Shown here one piece after another: positions 41,544 to 52,151 of a stretch of 64,000 nt of DNA. Source of the DNA: Methanolobus zinderi (GTDB lineage Archaea > Halobacteriota > Methanosarcinia > Methanosarcinales > Methanosarcinaceae); contig NZ_CP058215.1 of NCBI RefSeq assembly GCF_013388255.1, forward strand, positions 1,860,001 to 1,924,000, given 5' to 3'. Each line of letters starts with the position of its first letter. The first letter of the stretch is position 1. Below the pieces are notes generated by a model. It made no database searches. It saw only the letters and a program-made list of their open reading frames with translations, and was not told where the DNA came from. The position numbers were made by a program, and so were the translations under genes.

Positions 41544-43055
41544 CTATTCACCATTTCCGTTGATAATTCCCAAAACTTCCCTGAAACTCTCCAGTGAAGC
41601 TTCGATATTTTCCACGATCTCATTTGCTAAAACATCAGGATCAGGCAAGTTATCGAGATCAGCAAGACTTGCATCTTTGAGCCAGAAAATATCAAGGTTG
41701 GTCTTGTCCCGTGCCACAATTTCCTCATAGCTGAATTTGCGGAACCTTCCGTCAGGATTATCTTCGCTCCAGGTTTCTTTACGGTTGTGCCGATCTTCAG
41801 GATTGTAGCATTTTATGAAATCCTCAAGATCGGCATATTTCAGGGGATTTTTCTTGAGGGTATGGTGAACGTTGGTACGATAATCATATATCCAGACTTC
41901 TTTTGTCCAGGGATCTTTTGATGCTTCTTTTGCCTCGAAGAACAGCACGTTAGCCTTTACACCATGAGCATAGAATATGCCTGTTGGAAGCCTAAGTATG
42001 GTGTGCAGATCGGTGGTCTCAAGGAGCTTTTTACGCACGGTCTCCCCGGCTCCACCTTCAAAGAGGACATTATCAGGCAGCACCACAGCAGCCTGACCAC
42101 CTGTTCTGAGAATGGTATGGATGTGCTGAACGAAGTTGAGCTGTTTGTTGCTGGTAGTTACCCAGAAGTCCTGACGGTTGTATGTCAGGTCCTCTTTTTC
42201 GATCTCACCTTTCTCGTTGGTGAAGGTCATGCTGCTCTTTTTACCGAAAGGCGGGTTGGTGAGCACGTAGTCATATCGGTCTCCGGGGTCGGCTATGAGG
42301 GCATCCGAAATGGATATGAGCGGTTCGCCATCGATCTCTCCGATGTTATGCAAAAAGAGGTTCATAAGAGCCAGCCTGCGGGTTCCCGGAACTATCTCGT
42401 TACCTCCGAATGTCTTGTCTTTCAGGAAACGATTCTGCTCTTTGTCAAGCTGGTAACCTGATTCCGGGGATGTCAGGAAATCATAGGCTGCAAGGAAGAA
42501 ACCGCCTGTACCACAACAGGGGTCGCCTATGGTCTTCATGGGTTCGGGACGCACACATTCGACCATGACCTTGATGAGCGGTCGGGGTGTGAAATACTGC
42601 CCTGCTCCGCTTTTTGTGTCCTCGGCGTTCTTCTGCAGGAGTCCTTCGTATATCTCGCCCTTGGTATCAACACCCATCATGACCCAGCTTTCCTTATCGA
42701 TCATGTCAATGACCTTGTAGAGCATTGCAGGATCGCTTATTTTGTTCTGAGCCTTGAGGAATATCTGCCCGAGCATCCCCGACTTTTTGCCAAGTTCCTC
42801 AAGCAGTTTCCTGTAATGCGTGTCAAGTTCAGCACCACGCTTCTGTTTCAGAGTATCCCAGCTATATTCTCCCGGGATACCGATATCCCTGCTATACGGA
42901 GGATTTCTGTACTCCTCGGCCATCTTCAGGAATATCAGGTAGGTGAGCTGCTCAAGGTAATCCCCGTAGCTCACCCCTCCGTCACGCAGTACATTACAGA
43001 AGCTCCAAACTTTGGATACGATGGATGATGTGTTCTCAGTCATTGTTTTTCCCAT
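41544..43055 (-). CDS. hsdM: Type I restriction-modification system methyltransferase subunit
   Basis: 503-residue N6-adenine DNA methyltransferase subunit HsdM. N-terminal helical domain (WSFCNVLRDGGVSYGDYLEQLTYLIFLKM), SAM motif I DPCCGTGGF (178-186), catalytic motif IV NPPF (267-270) and VLPDNVLFEGGAG are all intact. With HsdS it protects host sites, and with HsdR it forms the restriction complex. It is last in the minus-strand unit and overlaps the AlbA_2 gene before it by about 20 bases. ATG 43055 has an AAGGA site, and ATG 43043 is an alternative. Confidence 0.96.
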   Translation of the reverse strand: MGKTMTENTSSIVSKVWSFCNVLRDGGVSYGDYLEQLTYLIFLKMAEEYRNPPYSRDIGIPGEYSWDTLKQKRGAELDTHYRKLLEELGKKSGMLGQIFLKAQNKISDPAMLYKVIDMIDKESWVMMGVDTKGEIYEGLLQKNAEDTKSGAGQYFTPRPLIKVMVECVRPEPMKTIGDPCCGTGGFFLAAYDFLTSPESGYQLDKEQNRFLKDKTFGGNEIVPGTRRLALMNLFLHNIGEIDGEPLISISDALIADPGDRYDYVLTNPPFGKKSSMTFTNEKGEIEKEDLTYNRQDFWVTTSNKQLNFVQHIHTILRTGGQAAVVLPDNVLFEGGAGETVRKKLLETTDLHTILRLPTGIFYAHGVKANVLFFEAKEASKDPWTKEVWIYDYRTNVHHTLKKNPLKYADLEDFIKCYNPEDRHNRKETWSEDNPDGRFRKFSYEEIVARDKTNLDIFWLKDASLADLDNLPDPDVLANEIVENIEASLESFREVLGIINGNGE

Positions 43056-44532
43056 GAATTTTTCCTTTTAGCTTTTTCTTCATTTTATCTGTTAGGTAAT
43101 AACCCCCGGTCAATGTTGATTTGCCTCTGAAATCTATCAGATCAGCAGTCTTTAATTTCTTAATGTATCTTTCAACACTGCTAACCGACATTTTGGTTAT
43201 GGCTGCATAGTAAGGAACTTTTTGACCTTCGTTTTCTGCAATCATTTGCAAAAGTAAAGTCAGTTTTTCTTTCACCTGTTGGGTTACTCCCTCAACTGCT
43301 CCCTCAATTGCTCCCTCAATTGCTCCCTCAATTGCTCCCTCAATTGCTCCCTCAATTGACTCATGAGCAATCGGAATGACGGTTTTGAACACGTTTCCTT
43401 CTATAAACTGAGGAGTTCCATCATCAGTATATTCTTTTATCAAACGATTTACGTTTAAAACACCGGAACCTAATTCATCCACCCTTCCAAGCTGCATGAA
43501 GAATTTTACGATTGCAGGGTTTTTGGGGAACGGAGCAAATCTTTCAGGATCAATTGGCCCTTCACCGTGTGGGTTATTGGCATTCTCAACTTCCACCCGG
43601 TCTTCGTAGATTATGAATGTGCAGGGGTATGCATTCATATATTCCCTGTGGACTATCAAGTTTGCAACTATTTCCCTGAATATTTTATTTCTAAGACTTA
43701 CTCGCTGGTCACCTTGCATGTAAAATTTATCGGGTAAATGTTTGCTGATGAACGTCATTAGCTGCTCGTAGGCTTCTATAAGATTTGTCTGAATGTATTC
43801 ACGGTCATCGTAACGATAAATGTCTTCTCTGCGAACCAGTGCATCGATCTTAAAGTATGGAATTATCTGCTGGATAGTTTCATCTTTTCCCAGTAGCAAG
43901 GCTGCTGCAAGGGTGTAACCTTCCTGCGATGTTTTGAGATCTCTTTTCCATAGACCTGCTTTTTCAAGCATCTGCTGATCTGTCAGCGCCAGCCACGGAT
44001 GATTGTCGTTGTGGCTTCTGATAAGGTTCTTTATTTTGGGAAACAGGTCGGCTTTGAAATCTTCAAAACGCAGTGCAGGATAAATTATTCCTTCGGTGTA
44101 ATGGGATGTTTTGTAGTTGTATATCTCTGCGATCTGCTGTGGCTGTGTGACTTTAAAATCGCCGTCATTGCTGCGATTGAATACTTTGTTGGCAGTTTTA
44201 TGCACCTGTGAACTGGCAGGAACCTGAATATGTATCAGCCATTTCCCCTCTATTTCATAGATTTGCGGAAATAGTATGAACGGTGGTTCGAGTTTTTGAG
44301 GATTGTTTGACAGATTGACCAAATTAGTGACGATGGACTCGATTTTGTTATGCTCAACACCGATAATCTTACCATTGTCATCCGCTCCAAGAATTATGTC
44401 TCCTCCATCCCGATTGAGCATGGCACAAATTGTCTCGAATACATTTACAGGCAAGGAGGTACGTGCTTCCTTGAATTCCAGATGGATTCCTTCCTGCTCT
44501 TCAAGCAATCTTTTCAATCTTTCCAGTCCCAT
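43036..44532 (-). CDS. Schlafen AlbA_2 / COG2865 protein with EGAI repeats (copy 2)
   Basis: 498 residues: an N-terminal AlbA_2 (Schlafen-type) domain with LEFKEA and ILGADDNGKIIGVE, then a central helical region. Next comes a RecG-like/HATPase-related region (FREIVANLIVHREYMNAYP, ELGSGVLNVNRLI), and a C-terminal winged helix (KMSVSSVERYIKKLKTADLI). Residues ~392-415 are six tandem IEGA-type tetrapeptides joining the body to the winged helix. COG2865 proteins are often called transcriptional regulators, and AlbA_2 proteins recur in type I loci (the Rlo proteins of Campylobacter). It is six bases after hsdS and overlaps hsdM. Confidence 0.88.
   Translation of the reverse strand: MGLERLKRLLEEQEGIHLEFKEARTSLPVNVFETICAMLNRDGGDIILGADDNGKIIGVEHNKIESIVTNLVNLSNNPQKLEPPFILFPQIYEIEGKWLIHIQVPASSQVHKTANKVFNRSNDGDFKVTQPQQIAEIYNYKTSHYTEGIIYPALRFEDFKADLFPKIKNLIRSHNDNHPWLALTDQQMLEKAGLWKRDLKTSQEGYTLAAALLLGKDETIQQIIPYFKIDALVRREDIYRYDDREYIQTNLIEAYEQLMTFISKHLPDKFYMQGDQRVSLRNKIFREIVANLIVHREYMNAYPCTFIIYEDRVEVENANNPHGEGPIDPERFAPFPKNPAIVKFFMQLGRVDELGSGVLNVNRLIKEYTDDGTPQFIEGNVFKTVIPIAHESIEGAIEGAIEGAIEGAIEGAVEGVTQQVKEKLTLLLQMIAENEGQKVPYYAAITKMSVSSVERYIKKLKTADLIDFRGKSTLTGGYYLTDKMKKKLKGKIHGKNND
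43287..43358. repeat. 12-bp tandem array coding the EGAI linker
   Basis: Six head-to-tail copies of CTCCCTCAATTG on the plus strand, the first copy with one change. They are in frame, so copy-number change would alter linker length without breaking the protein. Confidence 0.92.
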
Positions 44533-44538
44533 TTGTTC

Positions 44539-46353
44539 TCACTTCTTCCCCTTCTTCTCCGCCTTCACCCTCTCCAGCAAAACATCAGCCGGCTCCCAGT
44601 CCGGCGCGTTCCTCACTTCCTCCAGCTCCCGCTCATCAAGCAACTTCCCCTCAAACGCCTTTTTCAAAATACTCTGCCGCAGCACCTCGGCCTTCTCCAG
44701 ATTCTCCGCGATGTCCTGCTCCATTTTGTCACAGACTGAAAGGCGTGTTTCTATTTCCTGGACGATGGCTTGTTGTTCTGGCATTGTAGGCAACGGGATT
44801 TTCATATTCAAAAATCTTTTTTGCGTGAGATTCACACCACTATCACTAATTCCAGTTTTCAAACCCTCTATAATAAGTGTATACTTTGCAGAATTCATTG
44901 TGTATTCAAAAAATTCAGGCACAATAAGGTCTTTTTTGAGTTTAATTCTGTATGCTTTATCGCAATTAATCAATCTAGGTCTGACTTTTTTAACTAAACA
45001 ACATACCCCAACTCTGACTCTCGGACCAGCACGTGTAATTAAGATGTCGCCTGCATTCAATTCATGTTGTGACTTTGGTTCAAGGTTTTTAGGTAATTTC
45101 TTGTTCTCTCTTTCATTGAAGTGGCCAGCTTGGATTGCAGTTGTTTTTATCACCCCCCACTCATCATCATTTGTGGATGGTTCTTTGTTACATTTTGGGC
45201 TCCAACCTTGTCCGAGTTCTTCAATTACCTCAGTGATAGGCACAAAAGTTTCAATTTTTGATGTTTCATCTAGCACCGCCTGCCTGTAAACTTTGAGCTG
45301 CTCCTGTACCAGTTTGAGATTGGTGATGCCGTTGTCGAGTTCGCTGAAGAGCTGCTCGATCTTGGAGACTATGGCGCGTTGTTCGGGGAGTGGAGCAACA
45401 ATAAATCGTATCGAATCAAATTTACTTTTATTTACAATGGTAACAGTTGTAGCAGAAGCTAAATTATTGAGCTGATTTTTAAAAAAAAGTGATTGTACTT
45501 GATAATATGTAAATTTAGGTTCAATAAATTGTGTTGGTTCTATGGCATTGATTTGCTGATTGAAAGCAATTTTTTTATTTGCTAAACCAACCCTGCCTAA
45601 ATTTCCAATGCATGTTATCAAAACAGTTCCTTCTGGAACAACTCTTGCTTTCTCTGCTCCTTTATTAGATAAATATTCAGAGGGCTCTCCGATAATTGAA
45701 TTGAACAATTCAGGTGGCTTTATTAATGGAATTTCAGAACCATAGTATTCAGATTTTTTCTTTGAAGGTGTATTTCCAGTAACAGTTTCAAAGATAGAAC
45801 CAACCTCAGACTCTTCCCATCCAACCTTTTCTTGTGCAAATCCTGAACTTTGGATGTTTTGTGAAGTCTCTTGTGGAATGGAACGATATTCAGAATTGTA
45901 CTCTTCCTTTTCCTCTGCTGAAGACATTGTATAGTCTTTGTTTAAAGAGCTTTGATATGATTTTGTTTCAAAATAATCCAGAGGTAAATAGCAGTAAGAT
46001 TGGGGTGGTCTGAAGTCTTTTTTCAAGATATAGGGATCGATTGGTTCAGAAAATTTTTCAAAATTAGTGATTTCAATTGCATAGCCGATATCCGATGTTT
46101 TATAGTAGTCAAAAAAGTCCTTTTCCGGGATGCCGGCATATTCACTACATTGTTTCCAGAGATTTTGAGGTGAATCTTCAATTATTCTTACAATCTCAAA
46201 TGATGCAACTATTTTTTTAACAGGAGAGCTTGCATAAATGAAAACTTTACTGATATCTCTTTTTTTAAAAATAGCTTTTCTAAACTCGAATTTCTTTTTA
46301 CCAGCTATTATCTCATCAACATACTTTGGTTTAATTGATAGTAAAACGTTCAT
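44539..46353 (-). CDS. hsdS: Type I specificity subunit HsdS with N-terminal ASCH domain
   Basis: 604 residues, against about 400-450 for a normal HsdS. Residues 1-125 form an ASCH (PUA-like) domain: MNVLLSIKPKYVDEIIAGKK, KFEFRK, VFIYASSPVKKIVASFEI. After a linker comes TRD1 (VTGNTPSKKKSEYYGSEIPLIKPPEL), conserved region 1 (PLPEQRAIVSKIEQLFSELD), TRD2, and conserved region 2 (PTMPEQQAIVQEIETRL). TRDs read the two halves of the DNA site. The ATG has a GGTGG site; an internal ATG at 45927 that could start a plain HsdS has none. It overlaps the PIN-GNAT gene by 23 bases. The ASCH fusion is unusual. Confidence 0.9.
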   Translation of the reverse strand: MNVLLSIKPKYVDEIIAGKKKFEFRKAIFKKRDISKVFIYASSPVKKIVASFEIVRIIEDSPQNLWKQCSEYAGIPEKDFFDYYKTSDIGYAIEITNFEKFSEPIDPYILKKDFRPPQSYCYLPLDYFETKSYQSSLNKDYTMSSAEEKEEYNSEYRSIPQETSQNIQSSGFAQEKVGWEESEVGSIFETVTGNTPSKKKSEYYGSEIPLIKPPELFNSIIGEPSEYLSNKGAEKARVVPEGTVLITCIGNLGRVGLANKKIAFNQQINAIEPTQFIEPKFTYYQVQSLFFKNQLNNLASATTVTIVNKSKFDSIRFIVAPLPEQRAIVSKIEQLFSELDNGITNLKLVQEQLKVYRQAVLDETSKIETFVPITEVIEELGQGWSPKCNKEPSTNDDEWGVIKTTAIQAGHFNERENKKLPKNLEPKSQHELNAGDILITRAGPRVRVGVCCLVKKVRPRLINCDKAYRIKLKKDLIVPEFFEYTMNSAKYTLIIEGLKTGISDSGVNLTQKRFLNMKIPLPTMPEQQAIVQEIETRLSVCDKMEQDIAENLEKAEVLRQSILKKAFEGKLLDERELEEVRNAPDWEPADVLLERVKAEKKGKK

Positions 46354-47818
46354 CGAGTTTGCCACCAGTTTTTAGGGCTAGATATTTCTCATGGTTTATT
46401 TCTGTTATTGATTGTGGTGGTCCTTTTAAAATATTTTCATGGATAAGTTCATTCAGATCCATTGGATCTGGTAAGAAAAAGTGGTGCTTAAAACGGATTA
46501 TAAATGCATTTTTATCTGCTTTCTCTGTGAGTTGTTCTTCAGAATACACGCTTCTTTTACCTACAATCCTTTTGAATTCATTTTGGTCGTTAGTTCTAAT
46601 CGGTTCCTGATCAACTACTCCCAGGGAAGTTATTGCTTTTTGATCATGCGACCGATAGAACAGAACAATATCTCCGGTCCTCAATCTTGAAGAATATCTA
46701 TCAGAAAGATAGGCTTTCTTAATCGTATTGCCCGGAATATTGATCTCACAATAGTCAGTGATTTTCATTTGTCTTTTCACATATTCCGGGAATAAGGTGT
46801 CGTGATACTCTGGACGAATGGGGATTATGAATTTTCTGATGTTTTCACCATCTTTAAAACAAGGATAATATTTTCTGGCGATCTCCAAAGCACCTAGGTC
46901 TTTATTTTCAGGCAAGAGTTTTTTAAGATATACCGGTTCGTTATTGTGGCTTAGTTCTCCCACTCTCTCAAAACCAAAATTTCGAATCACATGAATCAGA
47001 GTATCATCTTCGATCTCAAAGTGAGTCAGGTAAATTTCAAAGATTTCATTCTTAACGCAGTATTCAAAAGCAATTTTAAGGAAAAGTTCACCGATTTTGG
47101 AACCTGTCAGGTCTACTTTCAAAGTCGCAATTTTAACTCTGTTCACAGCAGGAATAGGAATATGTGTTTCTATTGGCTCGTTTTCTTCTTTTAACATGAG
47201 AAATGCTTTTACTTCATCACCGATTTGATACACATAGCACTCACGACCTTCATTTATGCACTTATCATACCATAATTTGAAATCTTCTTCTCCATAATCT
47301 GCTTTCAGGGAGTCAAAAAACGGTTGTTCGATATCAACTTCATGAGCATAGCATTTTTTCAACAGAGTATGGCTTGGAAAATAACGTTTGTGAAGTGAAG
47401 AAAAATAAGCAAGAGCAGAACTTATAGAAAAAACCCTGTCATCGAGGTTTAAGAGAAACGCCTTTTTCCTGATTCCTCTATCCTCTGTGATCAGAAAATC
47501 AACAAGGTTCTTTTGTAGCGAAAAAAGAATTTCATTATCGTTTTCATCATGTGAATTCTTTGGAGCACCAACCAGAGATATAAACTCATCATTAGGTATC
47601 GGTGGAGAAGGAATTATGGGATAGCCATGAACTTTTGATGAAGTAATTTTCCTTCTCTCGATATCAGTATCATTTCCGAGGTCTTTAAGAGAGGCAGGAT
47701 GAATATACTCTTGATGTCCATGCTCTCTTATCAGTCTCAACAGATTTTGGAGATCAGGAGCAAGTTCTTTTGGATCAAGAATATGAATCAGAATGTTAGT
47801 ATCATACAGGATTTTCAT
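46331..47818 (-). CDS. PIN-GNAT-PUA-like (EVE-type) fusion protein
   Basis: 495 residues in three parts. Residues 1-145 are a PIN-type nuclease domain: D6 in LYDTNIL, D91/D94/E96 in HDENDNEIL and D113 in ITEDRG are the acidic set. Residues ~160-300 look like a GNAT acetyltransferase (VNRVKIATLKVDLTG, FGFERVGELS). Residues ~327-495 look like an EVE/PUA-type RNA- or modified-base-binding domain (FIIPIRPEYHDTLFPE, RTGDIVLFYRS). I recall PIN-GNAT proteins beside ASCH proteins as possible toxin-antitoxin-like pairs. Here the ASCH partner is fused to HsdS in the overlapping next gene. Domain calls are by eye. Confidence 0.78.
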   Translation of the reverse strand: MKILYDTNILIHILDPKELAPDLQNLLRLIREHGHQEYIHPASLKDLGNDTDIERRKITSSKVHGYPIIPSPPIPNDEFISLVGAPKNSHDENDNEILFSLQKNLVDFLITEDRGIRKKAFLLNLDDRVFSISSALAYFSSLHKRYFPSHTLLKKCYAHEVDIEQPFFDSLKADYGEEDFKLWYDKCINEGRECYVYQIGDEVKAFLMLKEENEPIETHIPIPAVNRVKIATLKVDLTGSKIGELFLKIAFEYCVKNEIFEIYLTHFEIEDDTLIHVIRNFGFERVGELSHNNEPVYLKKLLPENKDLGALEIARKYYPCFKDGENIRKFIIPIRPEYHDTLFPEYVKRQMKITDYCEINIPGNTIKKAYLSDRYSSRLRTGDIVLFYRSHDQKAITSLGVVDQEPIRTNDQNEFKRIVGKRSVYSEEQLTEKADKNAFIIRFKHHFFLPDPMDLNELIHENILKGPPQSITEINHEKYLALKTGGKLDERFTIN

Positions 47819-47880: not shown

Positions 47881-47922
47881 ATATTTCATTATTATATTGA
47901 ATAAGTGCAAAGTACGATTTAT

Positions 47923-47977
47923 CCCACAAATTAAACCACAGTTTATACCACAGTTTATACCACAGTTTATACCACAG
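47923..47977. repeat. Intergenic 12-bp tandem array
   Basis: Three perfect copies of ACCACAGTTTAT (47935-47970), a fourth partial copy and a degenerate one before them. It shares the 9-mer CCACAGTTT with the coding array of the AlbA_2 gene 220 bp away. On the plus strand it reads as repeated PQFI without a plausible gene around it. Confidence 0.88.
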
Positions 47978-48003: not shown

Positions 48004-49371
48004 TCAGCTTTCAGATTGGTCCGTCACTTCCCAGTGTCCGCCTCTGTCAGGTCCTATGCGCTTCAAACGCCCTTCTTCTTTCAATTTAGCAATATTCCAC
48101 TCCACTCCGCGTCGGGATAGGCCTGTTATCCTGGTCAGTTCTTTTGTGGTGATGGAAGGTTTCTCTTTAATTGCTTCGATGATCTTTTCTGCGGAATTCT
48201 CCACAGTTTTCTCCACAGTTTTCTCCACAGTTTTCTCCACAGTCTTCTCCGAACTTGCATCGCGTTTTCGGAAAACCACAGAAAAACTGCCATCGTAGGA
48301 GAACTCCACCGATGCTTTATCACTTTCTTCCACAGCCTGCTTGATACGGTTTATCCCGGTGCCGACCTTCTCGATATAATCGATCCGATGCAGCAGGGAG
48401 GCAATAAGGGGATTGCGGGCAACACTCCGGGTACCGAACTCAGAGGGTTTCAGGCCACTTGGCAGGCCGCCGGGATTTGATATTTCAACCCTGTCGTCAA
48501 AGACCTCAACAAGCACATTGGAACCCCGGTCAAAATAATCACGGTGGCATACTGCATTGATAATAGCTTCCCTGAGGGCTATATCGGGTATATCGGGAAT
48601 TTCCTCACGGCGGATCTTTTCAATCCTGTACTCCACATTGGTATGCCTTTTGACAAAAAGGATAGCATTATCGATGTTCTCAACAATATTCTCCTTGAAA
48701 TCTTTCTTGTCAAGAATATTCACTTTTTCGATTCCCTTATACAGAACACAGACCACTATCGCATGATTCAGCAGGAAATCGATATCCTTTGCAAAGAACA
48801 GCACACCGGCATTGTTCAGTTTTCCGTCATCGGTAATGCAATCCAGATTCCTGAGCAGATCCATCCGGTCGATGGAACTGGTAATGCCCGCGAGCTTCAG
48901 GAAATTACGAAACGCCCTTTCATCAAAATCCGTCTCAAAATCAGCCTTGTCATTTCTCAGTTCCTCAAAACGAATACGACCTTCCTTCTGGAAAAAAGCT
49001 ATTATCTCATTACGGTTAAGCTTCTGGGAATTTGCCCCGTTCCGGAGAAAGAAGCCTCTGGAGCAGGCATAAGGTTTTTCGCTTCCCTCCGGCACATCGG
49101 CAACAATGAAATTGTCATATACTTCGATTTTAACATCTAACTGTGGCTGCAGCTGTCTCAGGGAATCCTGCACTCTTGATCTGAAACTGTTATCGGTCTG
49201 AACTCCCTTGATAATTCCCTTATCGCTAACTCCAAGAAAAACCTTACCGCCATTGGAATTAGCAAAAGCGCAAACCTCTTCCACAAACGACTTATCAAGA
49301 CTCTCCTTGAACTCAATATGGTATCCTTCGCCGGCTGCAAGAATACTCTCTATCCATTCATCCATATTCAA
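48004..49371 (-). CDS. Schlafen AlbA_2 / COG2865 protein with EKTV repeats (copy 1)
   Basis: About 455 residues. N-terminal AlbA_2 domain (YHIEFKESLDKSF, NGGKVFLGVSDKG), central part with FFLRNGANSQKLNRNEI. The RecG-like region is ALREAIINAVCHRDYFDRG and VEISNPGGLPSGL. Four EKTV tetrapeptides (residues ~376-391) lead to a winged helix (TRITGLSRRGVEWNIAKLKEEGRL). It is a distant paralogue of copy 2 with the same domain plan. Start TTG 49371 overlaps the hsdR stop; ATG 49365 is an alternative. Coupled to hsdR, it may be an RM accessory or regulator. Confidence 0.9.
   Translation of the reverse strand: MNMDEWIESILAAGEGYHIEFKESLDKSFVEEVCAFANSNGGKVFLGVSDKGIIKGVQTDNSFRSRVQDSLRQLQPQLDVKIEVYDNFIVADVPEGSEKPYACSRGFFLRNGANSQKLNRNEIIAFFQKEGRIRFEELRNDKADFETDFDERAFRNFLKLAGITSSIDRMDLLRNLDCITDDGKLNNAGVLFFAKDIDFLLNHAIVVCVLYKGIEKVNILDKKDFKENIVENIDNAILFVKRHTNVEYRIEKIRREEIPDIPDIALREAIINAVCHRDYFDRGSNVLVEVFDDRVEISNPGGLPSGLKPSEFGTRSVARNPLIASLLHRIDYIEKVGTGINRIKQAVEESDKASVEFSYDGSFSVVFRKRDASSEKTVEKTVEKTVEKTVENSAEKIIEAIKEKPSITTKELTRITGLSRRGVEWNIAKLKEEGRLKRIGPDRGGHWEVTDQSES
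48199..48246. repeat. 12-bp tandem array coding the EKTV linker
   Basis: Four copies of CTCCACAGTTTT (the last ending in CTT), in frame in the AlbA_2 gene between body and winged helix. Confidence 0.9.
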
Positions 49372-52151
49372 GCCGCCAGCGCCTCATTCATCTCATTAAT
49401 AATCCCGGCCATCTCATCACCAAATAACTGGTACATCCTGCCACGACCGCCAAGGCGGTCAAAAGGTGCATAGTCAAGGTCATCCATTTCCAGATGGAAG
49501 CTATTGGTCACATAGTTTTTAATTGTGCGCAGCCAGTCCATCTGTTCCTCGGTGAACTTCAGGGTTCCAGCCTGTTTTCCAAAAACCCAGTCCTGGAAAT
49601 TCCTGTTCACGGTCTGGTCGTATGCTGTAAGAACCGGATCTATACCAGTGATCCTTCGGATAAGCGCGATCAGGGCTGTAAGCTCGTTCTTTGGTGAATT
49701 ACCTTTGACATCTTCCAGTTGCTCGTATGCCTGCCATATACGGTGTGGGGCAAACTGCGGCTTTTCAGCTTTCAGTTTATCCATCACCTCTTTTATCATC
49801 CTGAAGGTCACGTCCCTGCGCCGGTAAGGTTGGTCATAGAAGATACTTAGTGCCGTGATCTCATCCTTATTGGCTTCCATGTATGCCTTGAAATCATCTA
49901 CAAGATCGTCCGCCTTTGCCACAGCATCCTTATCCCATTCAGCCCGGGTGACCCTGTCAATGTTCACCGAATCAATGATCTGCTCATGCACCCTGCGGAC
50001 ATTTTCGATATACTCGTTCAACTCCCTGGTAAAGGTTGATCTTGCAGTATCTATGAGTTCCTTTTGGGCCTGTGTCTTCAGTTCCGATTCGGGAATCTCC
50101 GGATCACGTTGTTTGATCTCAAAGGCTTTTGCCTCAATTATATCCGGATTATAGGCATTGAGCAGGTCCCTGACAGCCTGGTTTATGTTCTTTCCATCTG
50201 CCTTCTCAGCAAAGGTCTCCCTTTCATCATCAGTAAGCTGCTTGTTCAGCCTTGAAAGACGGCTGGCAAGGGAAACATAGAGGTCTTCACTCTCCGCTCC
50301 GAAGGTCACAGCCTCCAGCAGTTCTTTCATGGGAACACCTTTCTTACGTTCCATAGCCCTGCTTTCGGTTTTAACCGATTTAGTCACACCGGAGGCATCC
50401 ACAACAACAAAATGGGTCTTGGCAGAAACAACCGAAGGTGTCACTTTTTTCAGGTCATCCAGTTCAATGGTCCTTGTACCGCGTCCCTTCATCTGCTCGA
50501 AATAATTGCGGCTCTTCACATCCCTCATGAAAAGCAGGCATTCCAGTGGCTTAACATCCGTACCGGTGGCAATCATATCCACCGTCACGGCAATTCTCGG
50601 ATTATAGTCATTACGGAAAGCTGCAAGTACTGATTTCGGGTCATCCTCTGCCTTATATGTAACCTTCTTGCAGAAAGCATTCCCTTCATTGAACTCTTCT
50701 CTGACTATCTGGATAATATCATCGGCATGACTGTCGGTCTTGGCAAATATCAGCGTCTTTGGAACCTCATTCCTTCCGGGAAATATCTCCGGCAGCTTAT
50801 CCCTGAATGCCTTTATTACATTGCGTATCTGGCTGGGGTTGACAACATCTTTATCCAGTTTCTTCCCTGTGTAAGTGTAGTCCTCATCCAGTTGTTCCCA
50901 GCGTTTTTTACGACTGAGTTTCTCCCTGCGGTCCACATACTGGCCGGCCTGTATCTGAGCACCGTTTTTGGTGATCTCGGTCTCGATAGTGTATACATCA
51001 TACCCTACATTCACCCCATCGGCAACCGCATCCTCATGACTGTATTCACTAACCACATTCTCATTGAAAAAGCCGAATGTACGTTTATCAGGTGTGGCAG
51101 TCAGTCCTATCAGAAAAGCATCGAAATAATCAAGCACCTGTTTCCAGAGATTGTATATGGAACGGTGGCATTCGTCTATAACAACAAAATCAAACGTTTC
51201 AATTGGTATATCTTTATTATAAGCTACAGGCACAGGTTTCTTTTGCCATTCTTTCCTTTCAGCCGGATTCTCCTCTTCCATTTCCTCATCCAGCTCTTCC
51301 CCTTTCAGTATCGAATAAAGACGCTGGATAGTGGAGATACAAACTTGACTGTCAGAAGCAATAAAATTGGAACGCAGACGCTGCACATTATATAATTCCG
51401 TGAACTTACGGTTATCGTCATTCGGAACATAGGCCATAAACTCCTGCTCTGCCTGTTCTCCGAGATTCTTTGTATCCACAAGGAAAAGCACTCTCTTAGC
51501 ATCTGCAAACTTAAGCAATCTGTAGATAGATGTAATAGCAGTATATGTCTTACCCGACCCTGTTGCCATCTGGACCAGTGCCTTTGGACGATTATCCTTA
51601 AATGATTCCTCAAGATTCATGATCGCCTTGACCTGACAATCACGCAGCCCCTGTATTCCAAGCTCCGGAATATTCATCAACCGGGATCGGAGTGACTTAT
51701 CGTTTTTGAGCCATGCTATGAAAGTATCGGGCCTGTGGAAAGAAAAAACTGGTCTGGACCGTGGTTTTGGGTCGCGATAATCTGTAAACCTTGTAAGCTC
51801 CCCATTACTTTCATAAACAAAGGGAAGCGGGTCATTGTCCAGATACTTCAATTTGCTGGAAGCATATTCAGCTGACTGCTCTTCCACAACTGTTAATTTG
51901 CACCCTTCTTCTTCCTTTTTTGCCTCAATAATCCCTACAGGCACTTTATCAACAAAAAGAACGTAATCCGCAGGCCCAACATCAGTCCAGTATTCTCTTA
52001 CTGCAATTCCGGATGAGACGTTCCAGTCGATCTTGTTTCGATCCTGCACTTTCCAGCCAGTATCATCTAGCTTTTCATCAATGATATCCCTGGCTTTTTG
52101 CTCTGGGTTCTGATTCTGGCTCATAGATTCCTGGTCCACCGTAATACTCAT
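49368..52151 (-). CDS. hsdR: Type I restriction endonuclease subunit R
   Basis: 927-residue motor and nuclease subunit of EcoEI-like type. PD-(D/E)xK nuclease residues are D62 and E76-A-K78 (VGIIEAKKE). The helicase part has Walker A QMATGSGKT (195-202), DECH box (326-329), LTATPDKRT and a C-terminal helicase motif with QMKGRGTRT. The coiled helical C-terminus binds the HsdM-HsdS core. All motifs are intact, so restriction should be active. A TATA-like ATTTATATAAA precedes it. It is the first gene of the island and shares four bases with the AlbA_2 gene. Confidence 0.96.
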   Translation of the reverse strand: MSITVDQESMSQNQNPEQKARDIIDEKLDDTGWKVQDRNKIDWNVSSGIAVREYWTDVGPADYVLFVDKVPVGIIEAKKEEEGCKLTVVEEQSAEYASSKLKYLDNDPLPFVYESNGELTRFTDYRDPKPRSRPVFSFHRPDTFIAWLKNDKSLRSRLMNIPELGIQGLRDCQVKAIMNLEESFKDNRPKALVQMATGSGKTYTAITSIYRLLKFADAKRVLFLVDTKNLGEQAEQEFMAYVPNDDNRKFTELYNVQRLRSNFIASDSQVCISTIQRLYSILKGEELDEEMEEENPAERKEWQKKPVPVAYNKDIPIETFDFVVIDECHRSIYNLWKQVLDYFDAFLIGLTATPDKRTFGFFNENVVSEYSHEDAVADGVNVGYDVYTIETEITKNGAQIQAGQYVDRREKLSRKKRWEQLDEDYTYTGKKLDKDVVNPSQIRNVIKAFRDKLPEIFPGRNEVPKTLIFAKTDSHADDIIQIVREEFNEGNAFCKKVTYKAEDDPKSVLAAFRNDYNPRIAVTVDMIATGTDVKPLECLLFMRDVKSRNYFEQMKGRGTRTIELDDLKKVTPSVVSAKTHFVVVDASGVTKSVKTESRAMERKKGVPMKELLEAVTFGAESEDLYVSLASRLSRLNKQLTDDERETFAEKADGKNINQAVRDLLNAYNPDIIEAKAFEIKQRDPEIPESELKTQAQKELIDTARSTFTRELNEYIENVRRVHEQIIDSVNIDRVTRAEWDKDAVAKADDLVDDFKAYMEANKDEITALSIFYDQPYRRRDVTFRMIKEVMDKLKAEKPQFAPHRIWQAYEQLEDVKGNSPKNELTALIALIRRITGIDPVLTAYDQTVNRNFQDWVFGKQAGTLKFTEEQMDWLRTIKNYVTNSFHLEMDDLDYAPFDRLGGRGRMYQLFGDEMAGIINEMNEALAA

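What the first reader, a model, noticed from the sequence alone, without database searches (positions are those of the whole stretch)
44539..46353. ASCH domain fused in frame to HsdS
The specificity subunit starts with a complete ASCH domain of about 125 residues with its own ribosome-binding site, while an internal ATG has none. A PUA-like domain on HsdS could sense RNA or a modified base and gate the assembly or specificity of the RM complex.
Basis: partly seen in the sequence, partly recalled or inferred. Interest (0 to 1): 0.66.

Follow-up and report, generated by a model that had tools for sequence, protein, structure and literature searches.

The report
ASCH domain fused to restriction specificity subunit
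In a methane-producing archaeon, the protein that tells a restriction enzyme where to bind DNA carries an extra nucleic-acid-binding domain at its front; the fusion is real and shared by several related genera, but it was already reported in 2020 and nobody is known to have tested what it does.

Summary
ORF 46353-44539 (-) is 604 aa: a complete ASCH domain (residues 1-128), a variable linker (129-177), then a full two-TRD HsdS. It sits in the operon HsdR / Schlafen / PIN-GNAT-EVE / ASCH-HsdS / Schlafen / HsdM. The fusion is not a sequencing artefact: the same open frame occurs in 11 genomes of five Methanosarcinaceae genera. ASCH is under purifying selection (mean pairwise identity 83%, dN/dS 0.10) while linker and TRDs diverge, and some relatives have no internal start codon at all. 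The fused ASCH domains form one clade (99/94), so the fusion probably arose once. None of the other ASCH genes compared is fused to HsdS; ASCH usually overlaps the PIN-GNAT-EVE gene and sometimes abuts hsdS. The ASCH model matches ZmASCH (Z 17.5), and all three ZmASCH residues shown by mutation to bind nucleic acid are kept. The architecture is already published for Methanohalophilus (Bell et al. 2020, PMC7641849), with a proposed modified-base role. My mechanism is that ASCH is the dedicated partner of the PIN-GNAT-EVE effector and its fusion ties that effector to the restriction complex, as PrrC is tied to EcoprrI. That is inference. Function is untested.

The parts
45970..46353 (-). ASCH domain, residues 1-128 of the fusion
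   Evidence: PADLOC PDC-M11B 6e-49; AlphaFold model pLDDT 95, ZmASCH Z 17.5 rmsd 1.9 A over 130 residues
45823..45969 (-). variable linker, residues 129-177, with the non-conserved internal ATG at 45927
   Evidence: mean pairwise identity 0.36, dN/dS 0.59; very low pLDDT in a low-confidence model
45403..45822 (-). HsdS target recognition domain 1, residues 178-317
   Evidence: Pfam Methylase_S; variable among fused relatives
45271..45402 (-). HsdS conserved region 1 / long helix, residues 318-361
   Evidence: mean identity 0.91, dN/dS 0.07; long helix 323-363 in a low-confidence model
44794..45270 (-). HsdS target recognition domain 2, residues 362-520
   Evidence: second Methylase_S stretch; variable
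44539..44793 (-). HsdS conserved region 2 to stop codon, residues 521-604
   Evidence: mean identity 0.80, dN/dS 0.11
46362..46366 (-). GGTGG, candidate ribosome-binding site for ATG 46353 (lies inside the upstream coding sequence)
   Evidence: sequence
46331..47818 (-). PIN-GNAT-EVE protein (PADLOC PDC-M11A), overlaps the ASCH start by 23 nt
   Evidence: PADLOC E=1e-148; weak Pfam EVE and PIN; PIN-type acidic residues D6, D94, D113 conserved in 52-53 of 53
41544..43055 (-). HsdM, type I methyltransferase subunit
   Evidence: Pfam N6_Mtase 2e-66, HsdM_N
43036..44532 (-). Schlafen/AlbA_2 plus RecG C-terminal-like protein between hsdS and hsdM
   Evidence: Pfam SLFN_AlbA_2, HATPase_c_4
48004..49371 (-). 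second Schlafen/AlbA_2 plus RecG C-terminal-like plus HTH protein
   Evidence: Pfam
49368..52151 (-). HsdR, type I restriction subunit
   Evidence: Pfam ResIII, EcoEI_R_C, HSDR_N

Best explanation
This is a genuine ASCH-HsdS fusion protein. It probably formed once, in an ancestor of part of the Methanosarcinaceae, when two neighbouring genes of a type I restriction operon were joined: the asch gene of a PIN-GNAT-EVE/ASCH pair and hsdS. Steps shown by sequence: single open frame, single clade, conserved ASCH cleft, intact hsd operon, PIN-GNAT-EVE gene always directly upstream. Steps inferred: the ASCH domain is the dedicated partner of the PIN-GNAT-EVE effector and binds it and/or a nucleic acid it acts on. 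Tethered to the S subunit by a flexible linker, it places that effector (a likely RNase) under the control of the restriction complex, so that invaders whose modification or inhibitors defeat restriction release or direct a second, RNA-level defence. This would work like PrrC held by EcoprrI but is not a member of that family.
For: Fusion real and single: 11 genomes, five genera; fused ASCH monophyletic 99/94; ASCH dN/dS 0.10 against 0.59 in the linker. Operon intact: HsdR and/or HsdM with the fusion in all 11, both wherever the contig reaches far enough. PIN-GNAT-EVE directly upstream in 11 of 11 fused loci and 52 of 69 unfused ones, with overlapping genes; HsdS downstream in only 14 of 48 unfused. 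Precursor gene order asch-hsdS with 4-nt overlap or a short gap in unfused relatives. PIN-type acidic residues kept. TRDs are exchanged while ASCH stays constant, so ASCH reads or binds something that does not depend on the target sequence. PrrC/EcoprrI precedent (PMC2610378).
Against: No interaction between ASCH and PIN-GNAT-EVE has been measured. Seven of 33 well-flanked unfused loci have ASCH with restriction genes but no PIN-GNAT-EVE, so the restriction link can stand alone. In Methanococcoides seepicolus the PIN-GNAT-EVE gene has an in-frame TAG while the fusion is intact; this is a nonsense codon unless it is read as pyrrolysine. Close linkage of all operon genes makes co-evolution signals weak evidence.
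Confidence: 0.45

Rival explanations
1. The ASCH domain is a modified-base reader that adds modification dependence to the restriction complex itself, without needing the PIN-GNAT-EVE protein (the proposal of Bell et al. 2020).
For: Published proposal for the same fusion in Methanohalophilus (PMC7641849). PUA-like folds on other restriction enzymes read modified bases (review PMC12707154); the ASCH model matches the McrB N-terminal domain (Z 9.3), VcaM4I (8.1), YTH domains with m6A (8-8.6) and THYN1 with 5mC DNA (8.2). Cleft residues are conserved. ASCH-HsdS neighbours without PIN-GNAT-EVE exist.
Against: Fold similarity at Z 8-9 does not show ligand. The only close structural relative with data, ZmASCH, binds ssRNA and ssDNA and cuts ssRNA (PMC5615036). 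Most ASCH genes pair with PIN-GNAT-EVE rather than hsdS.
Confidence: 0.3
2. The fusion only couples expression and copy number; ASCH works with PIN-GNAT-EVE as before and contributes nothing to restriction.
For: Long, fast-evolving, probably disordered linker. asch and hsdS are adjacent and in places overlapping in unfused relatives. The ASCH/PIN-GNAT-EVE pair occurs without restriction genes in 16 of 33 well-flanked loci.
Against: The fusion has been kept without a stop through five genera, although an unfused neighbour would give the same coupling.
Confidence: 0.17
3. The frame yields two products, with free HsdS also made from the internal ATG 45927 or by cleavage in the linker.
For: Some relatives carry in-frame ATG codons in the linker.
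Against: No Shine-Dalgarno motif at 45927; the ATG is not conserved; L040 has no start codon in the linker and L156 none before TRD1.
Confidence: 0.08

Closest known systems
ASCH-HsdS fusion of Methanohalophilus (Bell et al. 2020, PMC7641849)
   Same: Same domain order, same PIN-GNAT-EVE operon, same type I system; the Methanohalophilus genomes found here (L041, L044) fall in the same clade.
   Different: The window copy lies in the Methanolobus group, has other TRDs and a shorter centre; the published text names only Methanohalophilus.
PADLOC candidate PDC-M11 (PDC-M11A + PDC-M11B)
   Same: Both proteins match, at E=1e-148 and 6e-49.
   Different: PDC-M11B is modelled as a protein of 132-142 residues; here it is the N-terminus of HsdS.
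ZmASCH of Zymomonas mobilis (5GUQ, 5GUS)
   Same: Fold (Z 17.5) and nucleic-acid-binding residues Y47, K53, S128.
   Different: ZmASCH is not fused to HsdS; its pocket residue W15 is K8 here.
PrrC held by EcoprrI
   Same: A likely RNase gene inside a type I hsd operon; proposed control by the restriction complex.
   Different: PrrC is an ABC-ATPase anticodon nuclease; here the effector is PIN-GNAT-EVE. Similar working is inferred, membership is not claimed.

Membership tests
Type I restriction specificity subunit (HsdS) | two target recognition domains (Methylase_S) | tested here: met
Type I restriction specificity subunit (HsdS) | conserved regions between and after the TRDs | tested here: met
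   CR1 identity 0.91, CR2 0.80 among fused relatives; EcoKI S match 1e-33
Type I restriction specificity subunit (HsdS) | hsdM and hsdR in the same operon | tested here: met
Type I restriction specificity subunit (HsdS) | directs methylation and restriction at a split DNA site | not testable with these tools
   needs methylome or assay
ASCH (ZmASCH-like) | PUA-like ASCH fold | tested here: met
   model pLDDT 95; ZmASCH Z 17.5
ASCH (ZmASCH-like) | GxKxxxxR motif | tested here: met
   G18, K20, R25, conserved in the alignment
ASCH (ZmASCH-like) | Pfam PF04266 curated cut-off | tested here: inconclusive
   21.0 bits against 21.2; a detection threshold, not a feature
ASCH (ZmASCH-like) | nucleic-acid-binding residues Y47, K53, S128 | tested here: met
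   Y40, K46, S119 in all 8 fused sequences tested
ASCH (ZmASCH-like) | ssRNA cleavage | not testable with these tools
   reported for ZmASCH
YqfB-type ASCH amidohydrolase | Thr nucleophile at position K+3 of the motif | tested here: not met
   position is E23 in all 67 sequences; T24A inactivates YqfB; equivalence by motif spacing
PDC-M11 candidate defence pair | PDC-M11A next to PDC-M11B | tested here: met
   genes overlap by 23 nt
PDC-M11 candidate defence pair | antiviral activity | not testable with these tools
   a candidate system in PADLOC; I found no paper testing PDC-M11
PrrC anticodon nuclease | ABC-ATPase N-domain with ACNase C-domain | tested here: not met
   the upstream protein matches EVE and PIN profiles weakly and PDC-M11A strongly; no ABC-ATPase match

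The most novel reading that the evidence does not exclude
The S subunit acts as a docking platform: its N-terminal ASCH domain holds the PIN-GNAT-EVE effector on the restriction complex and releases or activates it when restriction fails, giving an archaeal, structurally unrelated counterpart of PrrC/EcoprrI.
Probability: 0.25. Interest if true: 0.75.

Novelty: new member of a known kind. Interest (0 to 1): 0.36.

Why it matters
A stable natural fusion physically links a restriction enzyme to a domain whose usual partner is a candidate toxin-like effector. It gives a clean handle for asking whether embedded PIN-GNAT-EVE modules serve restriction or guard it, a question left open in 2020. I found no experimental data on any such system in archaea.

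Tried and rejected
Full-length AlphaFold model with 11 relatives: pLDDT 50, ASCH not folded, so no use for domain contacts. Viral contigs: no relative of the ASCH part. Plasmids: no place covering 80% of the fusion; the listed matches are to HsdS only. Considered and rejected: sequencing error or missed stop (open frame in 11 genomes); pyrrolysine read-through as the basis of the fusion (there is no TAG in the frame); YqfB-like deacetylase (Thr replaced by Glu). Given little weight: correlation of protein distances among operon genes, because all the genes are linked.

Full report
What is there. The frame at 44539-46365 on the minus strand is open. The best-supported start is ATG 46353, giving 604 residues. 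GGTGG lies eight bases upstream, inside the end of the preceding gene, which the frame overlaps by 23 nt. Stand-alone relatives begin at the same MNVLLS, and in L051 that ATG follows GGAGG. Residues 1-128 are ASCH and about 178-604 are HsdS with two TRDs. The same genome holds HsdS matches at three other places, in open frames of 386, 422 and 569 aa. The family model for this ASCH found only one place in the genome, the window, so ASCH is not a general part of HsdS in this organism.

Surroundings. Reading the minus strand, the operon is HsdR, a Schlafen/AlbA protein, PIN-GNAT-EVE (PDC-M11A), ASCH-HsdS, a second Schlafen/AlbA protein, HsdM.

Is the fusion real? A family search of 393 and then 186 genomes showed long open frames through ASCH in 11 genomes of five genus codes, all in one family. 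The named records include Methanolobus psychrotolerans, Methanohalophilus euhalobius, Methanococcoides seepicolus and Methanosarcina spelaei. Domain calling confirmed ASCH and HsdS in one frame in each; none of the other ASCH loci examined is fused to HsdS. The named scan kept 80 of 297 relatives, so rarer fusions elsewhere are not excluded. Among the 11, ASCH has mean pairwise identity 0.83 and median dN/dS 0.10, like the HsdS conserved regions (0.07, 0.11), against 0.59 in the linker. TRDs differ widely even between relatives with nearly identical ASCH, for example L042 and L043: ASCH 96%, TRD1 29%. High dN/dS in the TRDs reflects exchange and saturation as much as selection. L040 has no possible start codon between ASCH and TRD1, and L156 none before TRD1 itself.

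Origin. A tree of 90 ASCH domains puts all 11 fused ones on one side of a branch with support 99/94; the nearest group is unfused. Several unfused relatives have asch directly before hsdS: overlap of 4 nt in L105, L120, L149 and L152, a gap of 13 nt in L092. Joining of neighbours is the simplest route (inference).

What ASCH does elsewhere. Of 69 unfused loci with enough upstream DNA, 52 have PIN-GNAT-EVE immediately upstream. Of 48 with enough downstream DNA, 14 have hsdS within 2.5 kb. Among 33 loci with both flanks, 16 have PIN-GNAT-EVE and no restriction gene, 9 have both, 7 have restriction genes only, 1 neither. So the primary partner looks to be PIN-GNAT-EVE. These loci were found with a query weighted to this clade, so the fractions are descriptive.

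Structure and residues. The ASCH model (pLDDT 95) matches ZmASCH with Z 17.5 and rmsd 1.9 A over 130 residues, far above the next rows. ZmASCH binds nucleic acids and cuts ssRNA; Y47, K53 and S128 contribute (PMC5615036). Their equivalents Y40, K46 and S119 are present in all eight fused sequences tested; Y40 is present in all 67 and S119 in nearly all. The YqfB nucleophile is replaced by Glu, so YqfB-type deacetylation is not expected.

Mechanism. Shown: fusion, conservation, context, cleft residues. Inferred: that ASCH binds the PIN-GNAT-EVE protein or its target, and that tethering places it under the restriction complex. The PrrC case shows that a type I enzyme can hold an RNase silent until an inhibitor strikes (PMC2610378). 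The published alternative is that ASCH gives the complex modification specificity (PMC7641849). I rate the first at 0.45 in its broad form and the second at 0.3; the data here do not separate them firmly.

Novelty. Bell et al. [quoted passage not shown] Other papers found with both terms and read do not discuss this fusion. What is added here: the window copy, the spread over five genera, evidence for one origin, the selection pattern, the absence of internal starts in some relatives, and the ZmASCH residue check. This is a new member of a known kind.

Noticed in passing
43287-43358 and 48197-48250: In-frame 12-bp tandem repeats (6.0 and 4.5 copies) inside the two Schlafen/AlbA genes (IEGA and TVEK repeats); length changes would keep the frame.
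   Followed up: no
47918-47977: Five copies of a 12-bp repeat (TTTATACCACAG) between the second Schlafen gene and the PIN-GNAT-EVE gene, near its possible promoter.
   Followed up: no
L156:10700-10830: In Methanococcoides seepicolus the PIN-GNAT-EVE gene has one in-frame TAG; in this family TAG can encode pyrrolysine, so it may be read through or be a nonsense codon.
   Followed up: partly
L048:202-1104: 300-aa protein with ASCH plus a C-terminal part holding an RNRVAH motif and weak HEPN matches: another ASCH fusion with a possible RNase.
   Followed up: partly
L047:8663-10360 and L126:2348-4048: 565-566 aa proteins in which ASCH is followed by GNAT, a possible nuclease-like region and a second EVE/ASCH domain.
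   Followed up: partly
L086:3785-5973 and L091:3785-5976: In Methanoperedens hsd operons the place of PIN-GNAT-EVE before asch is taken by a 407-aa protein without Pfam match, a small protein with weak SocA/MC2 matches and a stand-alone PIN protein.
   Followed up: partly
44794-45270: The window S subunit is about 50-110 residues shorter than its fused relatives because it lacks the central KKAFEGEL/W region and its extension before TRD2.
   Followed up: no
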